Shown: piece by piece, positions 56,231 to 62,751 of the stretch
How positions within the stretch are numbered: the first letter of the stretch is position 1
How the letters are laid out: the number at the start of each line of letters is the position of its first letter
Assembly (NCBI GenBank): GCA_016223135.1
Contig: JACRPQ010000010.1
Span: 1-64,000, forward strand
Direction of reading: 5' to 3'
Source of the DNA: Chloroflexota bacterium
GTDB taxonomy: Bacteria > Chloroflexota > Anaerolineae > Anaerolineales > Villigracilaceae
DNA: 64,000 nt
Translations under genes and position numbers: made by a program
The notes under the pieces: model-generated
Database searches by the model: none
The model's input: only the letters and a program-made list of their open reading frames with translations
What the model was told of the DNA's origin: nothing

Positions 56231-56275
56231 CACTGCTCACTGCTCACTGATTACTGATCACTGATCACTACCTCA
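56230..56275. repeat. CACTGATCACTGAT-type repeat at the ABC gene end
   Basis: ACTGCTCACTGCTCACTGAT and further copies run into the 3' end of the ABC exporter gene and encode its last residues (SSEVVISDQ). Similar strings occur at 9954-9990 and 62752-62860. Confidence 0.55.
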
Positions 56276-58107
56276 CTGCTCACTTCCTCCGCCTCCTCCT
56301 CCCGCTCCGCGACTCCATACGCCACTTCCAACTGATGGCGGAACTGCTGGGTGTAAAGGCGGTAATAATGTCCGCGCAGTTTCAGCAGTTCGGCGTGCGT
56401 CCCCTGCTCGGTGATGCGCCCGTTCTCGATGACCAGGATTCGGTCGGCGCGGCGGATCGTGCTCAGGCGGTGGGCGATGACGAAGGACGTGCGTCCCTGC
56501 ATCAGCGCTTCCATGCCGCGCTGGATGAGCGCTTCGGTCAGCGTGTCCACGCTGGAGGTCGCCTCGTCCATGATGAAGAGTTCGGGCTTTGCCAGCACGG
56601 CGCGCGCCAGTGAAATCAACTGCTTCTGTCCCACCGAGAGCAGATTGCCGCCCTCGCCCACATTGTGGTCATAGCCTTTCTCCAGCGTCACAATAAAATC
56701 GTGCGCGCCGGCGATTTTGGCGGCTTCTTCCACCTCGGCGTCCGTCGCCTCCAGCCGCCCGTAGCGGATGTTGTCGCGCACGCTGCCGGAGAAGAGATGC
56801 GGCGTCTGCAGTACGATGCCGATGCGGCTGTGAATCGAAGCGAGGGTGTACTCCCTGTAATCGCGTCCGTTGATGCGGATGACGCCGCCGCGCGGTTCAT
56901 AGAAGCGGCACAGCAGATTCACAATCGTGGACTTGCCGCCGCCGGTCGGTCCGACCAGCGCAATCATTTCGCCGGGCTTGACCTTGAGCGTGAAATCCTG
57001 CAGGACGGGCTTGCGGTCTTCGTAGTAGAAGTCCACGTGGTCGAATTCGATTTCGCCCATCAGCGTTTGCGCGTCAACCGCGCCGGGTCTATCGTGGACC
57101 TCGGGCGGGGTGTCTGCCAATTTGAAGATTCTCTCCGCCGAAGCGATGGAGTGCTGCATCTCGGCATAGACGCGCGCCAGGTCCTGGATGGGCCACATCA
57201 TGAAGGTCAGGTACGAGACGAACGCCTGGATGCCGCCGATGGTCATCAACCCGATTGTGATTTGTTGACCGCCATAGCCGACGATGACTCCCAGCGCCAG
57301 CGCCGCGATGATTTGCACGGTGGGGAGGAAGAGCGCCGAGAGCCACGCCGCGCGGTACGAGGCGTTGTACATCTGCGTGGTCAATCCCTGAAACTCGCGG
57401 GTGTTTTCGTCCTCGCGCAGCAGGGCTTTCACCACGCGCACGCCCTGAAAGTTCTCGTTAAACGCGCCGGTGATTTTCGAGTTCGTGCGCCGCGCCGTGC
57501 GATATTCCACCAGAATGCGCTTGCGGAACTGCACGGCAATGAAAAGCATGATGGGGATGACCGTGAACACGATGAGCGCCAGTTTCCAGTTGATGAGCGC
57601 CATGAACGTGATCGAGGTGATGATGTTCATGATTGCCCAGGTCGTGTCCACCACGCCCCAGGTGAGCAGGTCGGCGACGCGCCCGGTATCCGAGGTCACG
57701 CGCGCAATCAGGCGCCCGACGGCGTTCTGTGCGTAGTACGAAAGCGACAGGTCTTGCAGGTGGTTGAAGAGCATCTTGCGCAGGTCGTATTGCACGCGCT
57801 CGCCCAGCACGCCGGCAAGGTAAATGAACGTGAACACAAACCCCGCCTGCAGCAGTTGAAACACACCGTAAAGGACGGCAAGTTCCATCACCCGCGCTTT
57901 GTCGCCCGGCACAATGCCCGTGTCCACAATCTGTTTGTTCAAGTATGTAAACCAGGCGTCCAGCATGGAGGTCAGCGCAATGGTGATGAGAAAACCCACC
58001 ACCCACTTCCAATGAGGTTTGAGCAGGGTCAAAATGCGCCGAAAGACCGGTGCGGTCAGTTGGCTTGTGTGTTCTTCTTCTTCGAGTTCGGTGATGACTT
58101 CTGACAT
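56251..58107 (-). CDS. ABC exporter half-transporter with canonical Glu (second pair, subunit 2)
   Basis: A 618-aa exporter: six helices, Walker A GPTGGGKST, signature LSVGQKQL and Walker B LFIMDEATSS with the catalytic glutamate. The weak signature and intact glutamate complement the DD subunit at 58655, as in BmrCD/TM287-288 heterodimers. The last residues are encoded by a dispersed repeat. It is separated from its partner by the four-helix-bundle gene. Confidence 0.92.
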   Translation of the reverse strand: MSEVITELEEEEHTSQLTAPVFRRILTLLKPHWKWVVGFLITIALTSMLDAWFTYLNKQIVDTGIVPGDKARVMELAVLYGVFQLLQAGFVFTFIYLAGVLGERVQYDLRKMLFNHLQDLSLSYYAQNAVGRLIARVTSDTGRVADLLTWGVVDTTWAIMNIITSITFMALINWKLALIVFTVIPIMLFIAVQFRKRILVEYRTARRTNSKITGAFNENFQGVRVVKALLREDENTREFQGLTTQMYNASYRAAWLSALFLPTVQIIAALALGVIVGYGGQQITIGLMTIGGIQAFVSYLTFMMWPIQDLARVYAEMQHSIASAERIFKLADTPPEVHDRPGAVDAQTLMGEIEFDHVDFYYEDRKPVLQDFTLKVKPGEMIALVGPTGGGKSTIVNLLCRFYEPRGGVIRINGRDYREYTLASIHSRIGIVLQTPHLFSGSVRDNIRYGRLEATDAEVEEAAKIAGAHDFIVTLEKGYDHNVGEGGNLLSVGQKQLISLARAVLAKPELFIMDEATSSVDTLTEALIQRGMEALMQGRTSFVIAHRLSTIRRADRILVIENGRITEQGTHAELLKLRGHYYRLYTQQFRHQLEVAYGVAEREEEAEEVSSEVVISDQ

Positions 58108-58211: not shown

Positions 58212-58586
58212 TCATCTTTGGTTATTCTTCCGTTTCTTGATCTTCGTCACGATAGTCACGAAGATAGCAATGAGTTCATTCGTTTCCCTGATGAGGGATT
58301 CCAAATTTTTAGCAGGGACGAATCCGCCTTTCACGAGCAGTCCGAGCCAATAGTCGGTTTCATCCAACTCCTGCAAAACGCCTTCGAACTTGCTAATTAC
58401 GTCGGCGTCAGATTTTGCCCGATGACCTTCCCGATATTGCGCTCCAACGGATGTGCCAGAGCGCAAAACCTGTTTTCCAATCACCTGCACTTCGGTCTTT
58501 TTCGAGAGGCTGGAATACAGGCGAATGATTCGCAGTGCATACTCGCTTGTCCGTTCTCCCAAGTCCTGCAGATTTTCGTTTGTCAT
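58212..58586 (-). CDS. Four-helix-bundle protein (23S rRNA intervening-sequence-protein family)
   Basis: A 124-aa helical protein of the S23/IVP family. LRSGTSVGAQYREGHRAKSDADVISKFEGVLQELDETDYWLGLL is its hallmark. The function is unknown; relatives form pentamers and are often encoded in rRNA intervening sequences or near mobile DNA. The start at 58586 is set by GGAG upstream; a start at 58637 would add a basic stretch. It lies between two ABC exporter genes, probably after insertion. Confidence 0.85.
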   Translation of the reverse strand: MTNENLQDLGERTSEYALRIIRLYSSLSKKTEVQVIGKQVLRSGTSVGAQYREGHRAKSDADVISKFEGVLQELDETDYWLGLLVKGGFVPAKNLESLIRETNELIAIFVTIVTKIKKRKNNQR

Positions 58587-58654
58587 TTTGGCATTCTCCA
58601 TTTGATTTTGATTTCGCCGCTTCAGGCGTTCATTCATATCTCATCTTTCATCTT

Positions 58655-60505
58655 TCATCTTTCAACTCTCGAAATTTCCATCTCCAACTCCTCGTCAATC
58701 CTCGTCTGAATGTCATAAATCCGGCGATACATGCCAGCCGAGTCCGCGAGCAATTCATCGTGCGTGCCCATCTGCACCACTTCGCCCTTGTCCATCACGA
58801 GGATGAGGTCGGCGTTCATTACGGACTGGATGCGGTGGGCGATGATGAAGGTGGTGCGGTTTTCCATCAGTCGATTCAACGCCGCGCGGATTTCGGCTTC
58901 AGTTTCGGTGTCCACCGAGGAGGTCGAGTCGTCGAGGATGAGGATGCGCGGATTCTTGAGCAGGGTGCGGGCAATGGTCACGCGCTGCTTTTGTCCGCCG
59001 GAGAGTGTCACGCCTTTTTCGCCGACCAGCGTGTTGTAACCGTCGGGAAAGCCGAGGATGACATCGTGGATGGCGGCGGCTTTGGCGGCGCGCTCCACTT
59101 CCTCTTGCGGCACATCCCGCCCCACGCCGTAGGTGATATTCTCGCGGATGGAGCGGCTGAACAGAAACGGCTCCTGCTCCACGATGCCTATCTGCCGGCG
59201 CAGATAGGCGCGCGGGTAATCCTTCAATTCCACGCCGTCGAGCAGAATGCGCCCGCCGGTGTATTCGTGGAAACGGGGCAGCAGGTTGACCAGCGAGGTC
59301 TTGCCTGAACCGGTCGAGCCGAGCAGCGCCACAGCCTGCCCCGGCTGGACGCGGAACGAGATGTTCTTCAGCGCATCCGACTTGCCGTCCGAGTACATGA
59401 ACGAGACATTCTCAAAGACAATCTCGCCTCGCACCGGACCTGTGGGCTGGTACTTCCCATCGTGGAGCGGCTCCCGCGCCTGCTTCACCACTTCCATCAG
59501 ACGCCCATACGACACCATGCCCGTCGAGGCAGAGACGATGATGCGTCCCAGGTTGCGGATGGGCCAAATCAGCCACACCACCAGCCCCACATAGGCAACG
59601 TACATGCCGACCGTAATCTCGCCGTTGATTGCCATGTTGGCGGCATAGACAAAGCCGAACAGCATTTGCAAACCCAGCACGATGTCGGAGAGGGGCCAGA
59701 ACATCGAGTGCATGAAGAGCAGAATCTTCCCTTTCAGGAACTTGCCCCAGTTATCCTTCTCGAACTTGCTCTTTTCGTATTCCTGCCGCGCAAATGCCTT
59801 GACCACGCGCACGCCGGTCAGGTTTTCCTGCAGGGTGGTGGAAAGCACCGCTTCCTGCGCCTGATATTCCTCGTATGCCTTCGTCACCTTTTTGAAAAAC
59901 CACAGCGACACCCACAGCATGAACGGGATGACGACGACCGAAACAAGCCCCAACTCCACGTTCAGGTTCAGGATGGCGGCGAAGTTGATGACGAACAACA
60001 AGATGATGCGTCCCATGCCGATGCCCTGTTCGCTGAAAAAACGGCGCAGGGCGTCCACATCGGAGGTGACGCGTTCGATCAAGTCACCGGTGGAGGTGCT
60101 GGCATGATACGAGAAACTCAACCGCTGAATGTGGTCGAAGAGAAAATCGCGCAGGCGGCGCGTAATGCCCTCGGCGGTGTAGGCGGCTAAACGTCCCGAA
60201 AGAAACGAGAATCCGCCCTCCACGATGGCAAGTCCCACAAAGCCGGCGCCAATCCAAAGCGATGTCGTCCCAAGGCTTCCGCCGATGAATTTCCCTTGCG
60301 AGAGAACATCATCGGCAAAGAAGCGCAGGAGCAGGTAGGTGAAGGTCTTTGCCAGCGCCGAAACAGCCAGCGCCAGCGTCGCGCCGATGTAGGGCAGGCG
60401 GTAATCCACCATCATCTTCCACAAACCCTTCAGGCGGTTTTCGTCGAGGGCGCGGCGGAAGTCGAAGGTGATCGCGGGTTCGTAAACGGGTTGTGTTGCA
60501 GTCAT
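58655..60505 (-). CDS. ABC exporter half-transporter with degenerate Walker B (DD) (second pair, subunit 1)
   Basis: A 616-aa exporter: six helices, Walker A GSTGSGKTS, signature LSGGQKQR and Walker B ILILDDSTSS. The catalytic glutamate is replaced by Asp, so this subunit supplies the degenerate ATP site. GGAGAAACATC before ATG 60505 fixes the start. The mRNA leader of about 200 bases carries a 27-codon ORF and a strong terminator, so expression is probably controlled by attenuation as for BmrCD. Confidence 0.92.
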   Translation of the reverse strand: MTATQPVYEPAITFDFRRALDENRLKGLWKMMVDYRLPYIGATLALAVSALAKTFTYLLLRFFADDVLSQGKFIGGSLGTTSLWIGAGFVGLAIVEGGFSFLSGRLAAYTAEGITRRLRDFLFDHIQRLSFSYHASTSTGDLIERVTSDVDALRRFFSEQGIGMGRIILLFVINFAAILNLNVELGLVSVVVIPFMLWVSLWFFKKVTKAYEEYQAQEAVLSTTLQENLTGVRVVKAFARQEYEKSKFEKDNWGKFLKGKILLFMHSMFWPLSDIVLGLQMLFGFVYAANMAINGEITVGMYVAYVGLVVWLIWPIRNLGRIIVSASTGMVSYGRLMEVVKQAREPLHDGKYQPTGPVRGEIVFENVSFMYSDGKSDALKNISFRVQPGQAVALLGSTGSGKTSLVNLLPRFHEYTGGRILLDGVELKDYPRAYLRRQIGIVEQEPFLFSRSIRENITYGVGRDVPQEEVERAAKAAAIHDVILGFPDGYNTLVGEKGVTLSGGQKQRVTIARTLLKNPRILILDDSTSSVDTETEAEIRAALNRLMENRTTFIIAHRIQSVMNADLILVMDKGEVVQMGTHDELLADSAGMYRRIYDIQTRIDEELEMEISRVER

Positions 60506-60555: not shown

Positions 60556-60591
60556 TTAAACAAAAAGGCTGTGGCGGGTGCGCCACAGCCT
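60556..60591 (-). terminator. Intrinsic terminator in the leader of the ABC exporter operon
   Basis: On the minus strand AGGCTGTGGCG-CACC-CGCCACAGCCT is a perfect 11-bp stem followed by TTTTTGTTTAATTTT. It lies after the leader ORF and before the exporter start, so most transcripts should stop here. CCTGTCGTTACAGG just upstream overlaps the first bases of the stem and may compete with it. Confidence 0.9.
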
Positions 60592-60612
60592 GTAACGACA
60601 GGAAAGGTCGAC

Positions 60613-60696
60613 CTAACGGTCTATAGGCGCACTACGAGAAGGCAATGTCCCGGCAACGACGGGAGAAATGAAGGGGGTAAAGATGATGATGTTCAT
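60613..60696 (-). CDS. 27-residue leader peptide of the ABC exporter
   Basis: ATG 60696 has AAAGGAG eight bases upstream, a better ribosome site than many real genes here. The peptide starts MNIIIFTPFISPVVAG and ends PIDR, rich in Ile, Pro and Val, with the stop TAG at 60613. The ribosome-site/start region (60697-60705) is complementary over nine bases to the ORF's 3' part (60627-60635). A ribosome stalled by an antibiotic would change this pairing and the downstream terminator. The length and position resemble B. subtilis bmrB; no sequence match is claimed. Confidence 0.75.
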   Translation of the reverse strand: MNIIIFTPFISPVVAGTLPSRSAPIDR

Positions 60697-60705
60697 GTAG
60701 TGCGC
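60627..60705 (-). promoter_or_regulatory. Long-range pairing elements of the leader
   Basis: GCGCACTAC next to the leader start and GTAGTGCGC near its 3' end are exact reverse complements. The pairing would enclose most of the ORF and hide its start codon. Confidence 0.7.
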
Positions 60706-60794
60706 TCCTTTCTTTAGAATTTACTTAATGCCCGCCCAGTGTACTCTGCCGGCGGGGATATTGTCAAGGCTCGATTCGATATAACTCGGTATTA

Positions 60795-61614: not shown

Positions 61615-62631
61615 CTATTTGCCTTTCTCGAAAATCTCGTAGTAGCCCTTGTCGAGTTCGTCGTCGCTGAGGTGGGCGTATCGCTGGGTGACCTGGATGT
61701 TGGCGTGGCGCGCCAGTTCCTGGGCGAGTTTCAGGTTGCCCGAGCCGCGCAGGACGGTCGTAACAAAATAATGACGGAACGAGTGCGGCGTGATTTTGCC
61801 AACCATTTCTTTGCCTAGTAATTGTTCCACGCGTTCTTTGACAATGTTGCGTCCCGTTGTCGGCGTGATGGGCTTGACCTTTTTACCGGCGCCCTTGTCG
61901 TGGCGGGCAAAGAGGGGCAGGGAGGTGAGTTGCCTTCCTGAATTTCCATCCAGGGCGGCGCGCTGCGTCAGATAGTCCTTGATTGCCCGAATGGCGCGCG
62001 TGGTAAATCGAACGACCGCCTGCTTGTTGCCCTTGCCAATGATGATGGCGCGCCCCTCGTTCCAGTCCATATCGCCGCGGCGCAAAGCGCAGGCTTCGTG
62101 AACGCGCAGTCCCGTATCCGCCAGGGTGAGCAGGAACGCCCGGTCACGCATTGCGCGTAGATGAACAATGGCAGGGGAATCACCGTCATCGGGCAGGGAA
62201 ACAAGGTTCGGCAGTTGCTCCACTTTTTCTAAAATCCGCTCGATTTCGTAAGTGGGGAACTGGGGGAAGGTGACGCCGGGGCGGCGCGAACGCTGGCGTA
62301 TAAGCACACGCACGCGCGACTGGTTGACTTCCGCCAGTCGCTCCGAGTCAATGAAGAGGTAGAAACCTTTCACAGCCTGCAGGTAGAGTTGTTCGGTGGC
62401 GGTCGAGTAGGCGTGCAGGTATTCGATGAACGGCGAGAGGAAATCTTCGGAGAGTTTGGTAATGGGAGCGGTATCAGGGTCCAGCCATTTTTCGGTCAGC
62501 ACGCTGCGGAAGATTTGCATCGCATTTTTATACGCAAGCCAGGTGTGCTTGCTGCGGGAGGTCTTGATCATGTCCAGATAGCGGCTGATGGTCTGGGAAA
62601 TGGTCGGAGGATTTGCCTCGATGGCTGTCAT
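61615..62631 (-). CDS. Tyrosine recombinase / integrase (XerC/D-like)
   Basis: A 338-aa recombinase. An N-terminal SAM-like core-binding domain (TISRYLDMIKTSRSKHTWLAYKNAM) precedes the catalytic domain: Arg in DTGLRVHEAC, HSFRHYFVT (H-x-x-R), LARHANIQVTQRYAHLS with the second His and the nucleophilic Tyr. Size and wording fit chromosomal Xer proteins or element-borne integrases. The start at 62631 follows the -10 element by seven bases. It is convergent with the aminotransferase gene. No attachment site was recognised. Confidence 0.9.
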   Translation of the reverse strand: MTAIEANPPTISQTISRYLDMIKTSRSKHTWLAYKNAMQIFRSVLTEKWLDPDTAPITKLSEDFLSPFIEYLHAYSTATEQLYLQAVKGFYLFIDSERLAEVNQSRVRVLIRQRSRRPGVTFPQFPTYEIERILEKVEQLPNLVSLPDDGDSPAIVHLRAMRDRAFLLTLADTGLRVHEACALRRGDMDWNEGRAIIIGKGNKQAVVRFTTRAIRAIKDYLTQRAALDGNSGRQLTSLPLFARHDKGAGKKVKPITPTTGRNIVKERVEQLLGKEMVGKITPHSFRHYFVTTVLRGSGNLKLAQELARHANIQVTQRYAHLSDDELDKGYYEIFEKGK

Positions 62632-62638
62632 GATGGTC

Positions 62639-62666
62639 ATTATACGAATTTTGGCGCTCTTGTCAA
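62639..62666 (-). promoter_or_regulatory. Near-consensus promoter of the recombinase gene
   Basis: On the minus strand TTGACA (62666-62661), 16 bases, TATAAT (62644-62639). The start codon at 62631 is about where transcription begins, so the mRNA is leaderless. Confidence 0.8.
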
Positions 62667-62751
62667 TGTTTTTGATAATAATACTTATCGAAAACATAAT
62701 CAAATTACGATTGCTTGCCGCACTTGGTCAAAAGCAAACCGCTCCCCTGCT

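What the first reader, a model, noticed from the sequence alone, without database searches (positions are those of the whole stretch)
60556..60705. Leader peptide and terminator predicted to attenuate a heterodimeric ABC exporter
Seen: a 27-codon ORF with a strong ribosome site, a 9-bp exact complement between its start region and its 3' part, then an 11-bp perfect stem with a long T-tract, all before an ABC exporter pair with one degenerate ATP site. Known: B. subtilis bmrCD, also a heterodimeric exporter, is controlled by leader peptide BmrB and ribosome-mediated attenuation. Inferred: antibiotics that stall the ribosome on the leader would allow read-through. I know of no such device described in Chloroflexota.
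Basis: partly seen in the sequence, partly recalled or inferred. Interest (0 to 1): 0.85.

Follow-up and report, generated by a model that had tools for sequence, protein, structure and literature searches.

The report
Ribosome-sensing RNA switch before drug pumps
A short leader gene and three competing RNA hairpins in front of a drug-pump operon form a conserved switch that should turn the operon on when ribosomes stall, and the same switch precedes other ribosome-care and resistance-type genes in one class of Chloroflexota bacteria.

Summary
On the minus strand, before a heterodimeric ABC exporter, lie a sigma-70-like promoter, a 27-codon leader with a good ribosome site, a 9-bp helix joining the leader's start region (strand 1) to codons near its end (strand 2), and an 11-bp terminator. 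This is the layout of B. subtilis vmlR: uORF inside an anti-antiterminator, antiterminator, terminator.

It is conserved: all 80 exporter loci examined (the best 80 of 117) carry it. Leader frame and stop position are kept, peptide sequence hardly. Substitutions in strand 2 are matched in strands 1 and 3. A covariance model found copies across the window's class and none outside it in a phylum sample, before a second exporter, GNAT acetyltransferases, ABC ATPases, RsgA, RIO1 kinases and ABC-F proteins.

Best reading: an attenuator family not in Rfam that switches on a translation-stress regulon when ribosomes stall early in the leader. Drug induction is inferred, not shown.

The parts
60738..60767 (-). 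sigma-70-like promoter TTGACA - 18 nt - TACACT; transcription start inferred near 60731
   Evidence: 73 of 80 orthologue loci have a site with at least 10/12 matches upstream
60705..60712 (-). ribosome binding site GAAAGGAG of the leader
   Evidence: sequence; mostly invariant or near-invariant columns in 20 aligned loci
60697..60705 (-). strand 1 (GCGCACTAC), next to the ribosome site and up to the start codon; 5' half of the anti-antiterminator
   Evidence: pair counts; found unprompted by RNAalifold
60613..60696 (-). 27-codon leader ORF MNIIIFTPFISPVVAGTLPSRSAPIDR, stop TAG
   Evidence: in-frame counterpart in 78 of 80 orthologue loci
60649..60663 (-). small hairpin CCCG-TCGTTGC-CGGG inside the leader (weakly supported)
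   Evidence: 63% of cells paired as aligned
60626..60635 (-). strand 2 (GTAGTGCGCC), within codons 21-24 (R-S-A-P); pairs with strand 1 (OFF) or strand 3 (ON)
60610..60621 (-). GACC-GTTA-GGTC mini-hairpin holding the leader stop codon
   Evidence: three counted pairs invariant in 20 of 20; lost in some distant copies
60589..60602 (-). CCTG...CAGG pairing that would cover the base of the terminator 5' arm
   Evidence: 97.5% of cells paired, 20 loci
60578..60584 (-). strand 3 (GGCGCAC), inner terminator arm plus loop; complementary to strand 2: antiterminator
60566..60591 (-). intrinsic terminator hairpin, 11 bp, followed by a T-rich tail to about 60551
   Evidence: -21.0 kcal/mol; 99.5% of cells paired in 20 loci
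58655..60505 (-). first exporter subunit (ABC-A), degenerate Walker B (Asp)
56251..58107 (-). second exporter subunit (ABC-B), canonical Walker B Glu, LSVGQ signature

Best explanation
A ribosome-mediated transcription attenuator of the anti-antiterminator / antiterminator / terminator kind. Default: strand 1 pairs with strand 2, or a ribosome that has reached the leader's stop codon covers strand 2; strand 3 is then free to join strand 4, the terminator forms, and RNA polymerase stops before the exporter. Trigger: a ribosome held at the start codon or on the first codons sits on strand 1 and leaves strand 2 open; strand 2 pairs with strand 3 before strand 4 is made, blocks the terminator arm, and the operon is transcribed. 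What is sensed is ribosome position rather than a particular nascent peptide. Most likely signals are antibiotics or stresses that hold ribosomes at or near start codons. Shown here: anatomy, conservation, matched substitutions, conserved frame and stop position, promoter-like site, target genes. Inferred: direction of switching, kinetic trapping of the antiterminator, and the inducers.
For: Element in all 80 orthologue loci examined. On 20 MAFFT-aligned loci the OFF structure pairs 90.9% of cells (29-48% when slid), with 9 pairs changed on both sides (shuffles 3.2, 0/500); the ON structure pairs 96.7% (29-43% slid), 7 double-changed cells (shuffles 1.3, 0/500). On 80 loci aligned by a model that held no strand 2:3 pairs, 92.1% of 629 cells pair, 8 double-changed cells (1.9, 0/500). 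At two columns of strand 2 six of 20 loci changed, each with matching changes in strands 1 and 3. RNAalifold finds strand 1:2 and the terminator unprompted. Leader ORF reads strand 2 in one frame in 78 of 80, stop 18 or 21 nt after the start of strand 2 in 72 of 80. Folding with an early ribosome masked, before strand 4 exists, gives strand 2:3 at 0.86 for the window; masking a ribosome at the stop removes it. Of 60 further copies, 58 could be assigned to transporter, acetyltransferase or ribosome-related genes.
Against: No expression data. At equilibrium the full-length RNA favours the terminator in every state (0.86-0.98), so the antiterminator must act kinetically. Without any ribosome, relatives on average form strand 2:3 about as often as 1:2 before strand 4 appears (0.58 against 0.33 in 20 loci; 0.39 against 0.45 in 78), although the window strongly prefers 1:2 (0.87). 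Strand 2 is nearly invariant (core exact in 69 of 80), so double changes rest on few lineages; at the level of pairs, not cells, the excess for 2:3 is weak (24/500 and 75/500 shuffles), and in the third set 110/500. 8 of 61 rows of the A5 set lack a clean in-frame leader, one of them a partial antisense match.
Confidence: 0.85

Rival explanations
1. Amino-acid-starvation attenuator of the trp/ilv type: the ribosome stalls at scarce codons in the leader.
For: Same helix logic; many leaders are rich in Ile, Phe, Thr and Val (read by eye).
Against: By eye, no run of one amino acid is shared by the 79 leaders listed; pN/pS is 0.87 in the largest group, with out-of-frame controls at 0.71-0.81; none of the classified downstream genes is an amino-acid biosynthesis gene.
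Confidence: 0.05
2. Peptide-specific drug arrest (erm-like): a nascent leader motif with a bound drug stalls the ribosome at one codon.
For: A hydrophobic stretch with Pro near codons 9-12 and a C-terminal R-S-A-P recur (by eye). In three small groups (2-7 pairs each) pN/pS is 0.54-0.58, below most out-of-frame controls, so weak peptide constraint is not excluded.
Against: S-A-P lies on strand 2, whose 8-nt core AGTGCGCC is exact in 69 of 80 loci, so RNA pairing accounts for it; in the largest group (34 leaders, 295 pairs) the peptide is hardly constrained.
Confidence: 0.12
3. A riboswitch or protein-binding RNA in which the short ORF is incidental.
For: Strong conserved RNA structure with a terminator.
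Against: 79 of 80 loci have an ORF from a start near the ribosome site through strand 2 (chosen for being open), while the other two frames are open that far in 22 and 44 of them; 78 read strand 2 in one frame and the stop position is nearly fixed.
Confidence: 0.05
4. A plain terminator that insulates the divergent aminotransferase gene and the exporter, with a chance ORF.
For: The terminator is strong and some read-through could feed the exporter constitutively.
Against: Loop and arm of the terminator keep complementarity to strand 2 across 80 loci; the element precedes unrelated genes elsewhere; frame conservation.
Confidence: 0.02

Closest known systems
B. subtilis vmlR leader (PMC9226507; only passages found by search read, one of them in the abstract)
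   Same: uORF inside an anti-antiterminator, overlapping antiterminator, intrinsic terminator; drug-stalled ribosome on the uORF prevents the anti-antiterminator
   Different: Controls an ABC-F gene and has further hairpins (a pause hairpin, one over the vmlR ribosome site); here one RNA family precedes many different genes. Sequence relation was not tested.
B. subtilis bmrB-bmrCD (PMC4191407; found passages and part 1 of 2 of the discussion read)
   Same: Leader peptide, transcription terminator and antiterminator before a multidrug ABC exporter; induced by lincomycin, erythromycin and chloramphenicol
   Different: [quoted passage not shown] here the terminator follows the leader stop and strand 1:2 is conserved. 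That BmrCD is heterodimeric is recalled and from the finding.
E. coli toiL uORF (PMC12121999; abstract, outline and one discussion section read)
   Same: uORF that reports ribosome stalls, including at its start codon, for several drug classes
   Different: Acts on translation and Rho-dependent termination, not on an intrinsic terminator
WblC/WhiB7 regulon of actinobacteria (PMC7157823; found passages read)
   Same: Comparable gene set: ABC exporters, ABC ATPases, Eis-type GNATs, an RsgA paralogue; uORF-mediated attenuation of the regulator gene
   Different: There one DNA-binding protein spreads the signal; here an attenuator copy sits in cis at each target

Membership tests
uORF-controlled AAT/AT/terminator attenuators (vmlR kind) | Short ORF with ribosome site upstream of the gene | tested here: met
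   translation itself not shown
uORF-controlled AAT/AT/terminator attenuators (vmlR kind) | Intrinsic terminator between leader and gene | tested here: met
   (predicted hairpin and T-tract)
uORF-controlled AAT/AT/terminator attenuators (vmlR kind) | Antiterminator overlapping the terminator arm | tested here: met
uORF-controlled AAT/AT/terminator attenuators (vmlR kind) | Anti-antiterminator that overlaps the antiterminator and encloses the uORF | tested here: met
uORF-controlled AAT/AT/terminator attenuators (vmlR kind) | Drug-induced read-through that depends on uORF translation | not testable with these tools
   needs a reporter or RNA mapping
Amino-acid biosynthesis attenuators (trp, ilv) | Conserved run of regulatory codons in the leader | tested here: not met
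   leaders listed, judged by eye
Amino-acid biosynthesis attenuators (trp, ilv) | Biosynthetic operon downstream | tested here: not met
Rfam 15 families | Match at the curated threshold | tested here: not met
   (only a tRNA elsewhere in the window); one match at E<=10, Sr006, 26.1 bits against a threshold of 100
WhiB7-type regulon | Overlapping set of resistance and ribosome-care genes | tested here: met
   against the gene table and passages of PMC7157823; compared by eye, no statistic
WhiB7-type regulon | WhiB-family activator acting in trans | not tested
   no search for WhiB proteins was made
Heterodimeric ABC exporters (TM287/288, TmrAB, BmrCD kind) | Two half-transporters with one degenerate ATP site | tested here: met
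   that these motifs mark a degenerate site is recalled; dimer formation not tested

The most novel reading that the evidence does not exclude
The class that holds the window (Anaerolineae, judged from record titles) runs a distributed, RNA-only translation-stress regulon. One homologous attenuator, about 160 nt with a near-invariant core, has been copied in front of efflux pumps, DrrA-like ATPases, Eis-like and tandem GNAT acetyltransferases, RsgA, RIO1 kinases and ABC-F proteins, so that every target senses early ribosome stalls by itself. It does the work that WhiB7 does through one activator in actinobacteria, and it reads ribosome position rather than peptide sequence.
Probability: 0.6. 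Interest if true: 0.87.

Novelty: new variant of a known kind. Interest (0 to 1): 0.76.

Why it matters
The uORF attenuators of resistance genes that I read about are described one gene at a time. Here a single homologous element recurs across a bacterial class; at 77 of 79 places that I classified it precedes a transporter, acetyltransferase or ribosome-related gene. If it works as inferred, it gives a ready-made list of genes that a poorly studied, mostly uncultured group uses against translation stress, ties RIO1 kinases and RsgA to that response in these bacteria, and offers a compact ribosome-stall sensor for reporters. It also bears on bmrB, where the role of a predicted anti-anti-terminator was left open, by showing such a helix kept in evolution.

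Tried and rejected
Chance matches: of the 30 loci fetched with the leader peptide, 10 (L019, L022, L024-L031; E 0.2 to 1.1) had no exporter beside them and were dropped. Strong peptide-level selection: looked for, not found in the largest group; weak hints in small groups. Small hairpin inside the leader: only 63% of cells paired as aligned, so I give it no role. Weak further matches in the own genome, two with R1 (E 0.47 and 1.8) and one with R2 (E 2.9), were not pursued. Viral contigs: the strand 1/strand 2 pattern gave 104 stretches; R2 on 80 of them scored at most 20.9 bits (E 0.04) and on the other 24 nothing at E<=1, so I treat them as chance. Rfam Sr006 at 26 bits rejected. Paper searches aimed at an attenuator of this kind in Chloroflexi/Anaerolineae showed 15 of 19, 15 of 147, 12 of 1,912 and 10 of 45 papers; none looked like it by title or start of abstract, and many journals are not held. 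PMC2864571 (two passages) names other Chloroflexi RNA motifs (Chloroflexi-1, pan) with Rfam numbers; no Rfam family reached its threshold here. PMC2965389 (found passages) has no mention of Chloroflexi. No structure prediction was run.

Limits of the counts: the 20 loci of alignment A1 and the 80 of A3 overlap (same genomes by two routes), and at least three of the ten exporter loci in the A5 set have the same leaders as rows of A3, so these sets are not independent. The 79 places classified by downstream gene were chosen by me from the printed match lists, not drawn at random. In one search the leader frame was picked for being open, so only the contrast with the other frames, the common frame through strand 2 and the stop position carry weight.

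Full report
What is there. All features are on the minus strand of the window. A promoter-like site TTGACA-18-TACACT spans 60767-60738. It is followed by GAAAGGAG, an ATG at 60696 and a 27-codon ORF ending in TAG at 60613. Nine bases from the end of the ribosome site to the start codon (strand 1, 60705-60697) are the exact complement of nine bases in codons 21-24 (strand 2, 60635-60627). An 11-bp hairpin with a T-rich tail lies at 60591-60566. The exporter genes follow: ABC-A 60505-58655, a small four-helix-bundle gene 58637-58212, and ABC-B 58107-56251. The leader region folds 4.0 SD better than shuffles. The new point is that strand 2 (GTGCGCC, 60632-60626) is also the exact complement of GGCGCAC (strand 3, 60584-60578), which makes up the inner terminator arm and most of its loop. 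Strands 1:2 and 2:3 exclude each other, and 2:3 competes with the terminator.

Conservation in close relatives. A search of 61 genomes with the leader peptide (E up to 10) gave hits in 16 of the 17 other genomes of the genus and in some of the family. Of 30 loci fetched, 20 had the exporter orthologue beside the hit (72-100% identity), and the other 10 were dropped. In the MAFFT alignment of these 20 the OFF structure pairs 90.9% of cells, against 29-48% when slid, with 9 pairs and 17 cells changed on both sides (shuffle means 3.2 and 4.4; 0 of 500 reach them). The ON structure pairs 96.7%, against 29-43% when slid, with 7 double-changed cells (mean 1.3, 0 of 500) and 3 double-changed pairs (mean 1.1, 24 of 500). 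Two columns of strand 2 carry the clearest signal. At one, L013, L014, L017 and, in another genus, L020 read G-C-G in strands 1, 2 and 3 where the window reads A-U-A; at the other, L008 and L009 read U-A-U for C-G-C. In three loci strand 1 changes alone, to a G-U pair. The terminator loop, whose letters the terminator itself does not need, is held to strand 2. RNAalifold finds strand 1:2 and the terminator without being told.

Wider conservation. A scan of species genomes with ABC-A protein confirmed 117 relatives and kept the best 80. Their titles name Anaerolineae or groups and genera within it (Anaerolineales, Anaerolineaceae, Villigracilaceae, Anaerolinea, Brevefilum, Desulfolinea), or just Chloroflexi/Chloroflexota; one is labelled Herpetosiphon. 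The covariance model R1, built from the 20 loci, matched in all 80, E 1e-36 to 1.4e-4, and each match ends 6-183 nt before the exporter match. On that alignment, whose model held no 2:3 pairs, 2:3 pairs 92.1% of 629 cells, against 17-67% when slid, with 8 double-changed cells (mean 1.9, 0 of 500) and 3 pairs (75 of 500). A script that looks for an ORF after the ribosome site finds one through strand 2 in 79 of 80 loci, and 78 read strand 2 in the same frame as Ser-Ala-Pro or a close variant; L152 differs, and L142 was missed because its strand 2 was mis-picked (a narrower script finds 79 in-frame ORFs). The stop lies 18 or 21 nt after the start of strand 2 in 72 of 80, so a terminating ribosome would cover at least part of strand 2. 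The chosen frame is open by construction; the other two are open that far in 22 and 44 of the 79. The peptide is hardly constrained: pN/pS is 0.87 for the largest group (34 leaders, 295 pairs), with 0.81 and 0.71 in the wrong frames; five smaller groups give 0.54-0.99, three of them (2-7 pairs) at 0.54-0.58 and mostly below their wrong-frame values, so weak constraint remains possible. A TTGACA-type promoter with at least 10 of 12 matches lies upstream in 73 of 80 loci, against 0.9% of shuffles, and in the A5 set a site with at least 10 of 12 matches to TTGACA/TAAACT in 46 of 61 rows, against 0.7%.

Range. With R1, 138 of 152 genomes of the family (E up to 0.1) and 224 of 400 of the order (E up to 0.01) have a match. 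The broader model R2 matched 81 of 298 genomes in a class sample and 22 of 301 in a phylum sample (E up to 0.001), every one of the 22 inside the window's class. Of the 301, the listing shows 38 genomes of the class and 4 outside it; 259 more without a match are not listed, and I take them to be outside the class because the list is ordered by kinship. Large searches used stricter filters that lose weak matches. On 104 viral loci preselected for the strand 1/strand 2 pattern R2 scored at most 20.9 bits. Rfam has no match at its threshold. Whole genomes of other phyla were not searched.

What the copies control. The window's own genome has a second strong copy before tandem GNAT acetyltransferases (G000:C5:43280-43460). 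I classified 79 copies by downstream genes, 19 and 60. ABC-A exporter: 16 (in L229 it starts about 0.9 kb downstream, with no clear gene between). A second exporter pair, about 25-30% identical to ABC-A or ABC-B in the set: 14 (one scanned). Tandem GNATs: 13 (own-genome pair by Pfam; nine by similarity to it; three by eye). Other GNATs: 10, four of them with the PF13527 domain that I recall from Eis. Stand-alone ABC ATPases: 9, of which the two scanned with NCBIfam are closest to DrrA, below its cut-off, and one (L194) is disrupted and followed by RtcB. An ABC-2 permease: 1. RsgA: 6 (Pfam). RIO1 kinases: 6 (Pfam). ABC-F: 2, both above the NF000355 cut-off, but one (L236) behind the weakest element, which lacks a leader ORF. 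Unresolved: 2 (L200 at a contig end; L210, whose first ORF looks like an ABC ATPase by eye). Among these 60, 53 loci keep an in-frame leader through strand 2, and 2:3 pairs 86.0% of cells, against 12-54% when slid, with 7 double-changed cells (mean 2.0, 2 of 500) and 3 pairs (110 of 500). In four of ten genomes checked, the only RsgA hit lies behind the element; in G006 one of two and in G454 one of three do (with places).

How it most likely works. Folding was done with ViennaRNA on RNA that ends before strand 4, as it would during transcription. With an early ribosome masked, strand 2 pairs with strand 3 at 0.86 in the window and 0.89 (20 loci) and 0.85 (78 of 80) on average; with a ribosome at the stop masked, 2:3 falls to 0.00-0.02. 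With the early ribosome, the outer four bases of the terminator arm are paired upstream at 0.79, 0.76 and 0.62 on average in sets A1, A3 and A5 (20 of 20, 78 of 80, 52 of 61 rows). So an early-stalled ribosome favours read-through and a ribosome that finishes the leader favours termination. At equilibrium the terminator wins in all states, so the antiterminator must act because it forms first; the vmlR paper gives this argument and the bmrCD paper also calls its antiterminator the less stable one. In the free RNA the window prefers 1:2 (0.87), but relatives are mixed, so in some species the ribosome at the stop may matter more than strand 1:2. The likely signals are drugs or stresses that hold ribosomes at start codons; the uORFs of vmlR, cplR and vga(A) are said to sense lincosamides and pleuromutilins in this way (PMC12121999, section read). 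That the peptide is not strongly conserved fits this better than a peptide-specific arrest.

Comparison with what is known. Mechanistically this is the vmlR kind, with bmrCD as the nearest exporter case: the architectural features are met and drug induction could not be tested. It differs in being one homologous RNA family spread over a class and over many gene families. The gene set resembles that of actinobacterial WblC/WhiB7 (ABC exporters, Eis GNATs, an RsgA paralogue), but here the sensor is copied in cis. Paper searches listed no report that I recognised as such an element in Chloroflexota; the listings were capped and the library lacks many journals. I therefore call it a new variant of a known kind.

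Noticed in passing
60738-60767 (-) and the upstream regions of L087-L166: The promoter is unusually uniform across orthologues: TTGACA, mostly 18 nt, TAAACT (consensus of 65 loci CCTTGACA...GTGTAAACT), and similar sites precede many GNAT, RsgA and second-exporter copies. It may point to a shared trans-acting factor.
   Followed up: partly
58212-58637 (-): A 23S-rRNA-intervening-sequence-type four-helix-bundle gene sits between the two exporter subunits (PF05635); similar-looking genes lie downstream of ABC-A in L082 and L086 (by eye).
   Followed up: no
L067:665-710 (own genome, C5): The copy before the tandem GNAT genes is followed at once by a second terminator-like hairpin with a T-rich tail (by eye).
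   Followed up: no
L112:2732-2919 (same locus as L009): A 24-nt in-frame insert sits between strand 2 and the stop hairpin of the leader, lengthening the peptide to 36 residues while keeping the frame.
   Followed up: no
62639-62666 (-): A perfect sigma-70 consensus (TTGACA-16-TATAAT) near the 5' end of a phage-integrase-type ORF 61615-62703 (-).
   Followed up: no
L197, L204, L216, L219, L224, L231: RIO1-type kinases behind the element in six genomes from other orders of the class, suggesting a role in translation stress.
   Followed up: partly
L260:4218-4338, L275:1075-1230, L283:5391-5511, L286:3962-4082: Four viral loci give weak R2 scores (16-21 bits) with low G+C; probably chance, possibly related to each other.
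   Followed up: no
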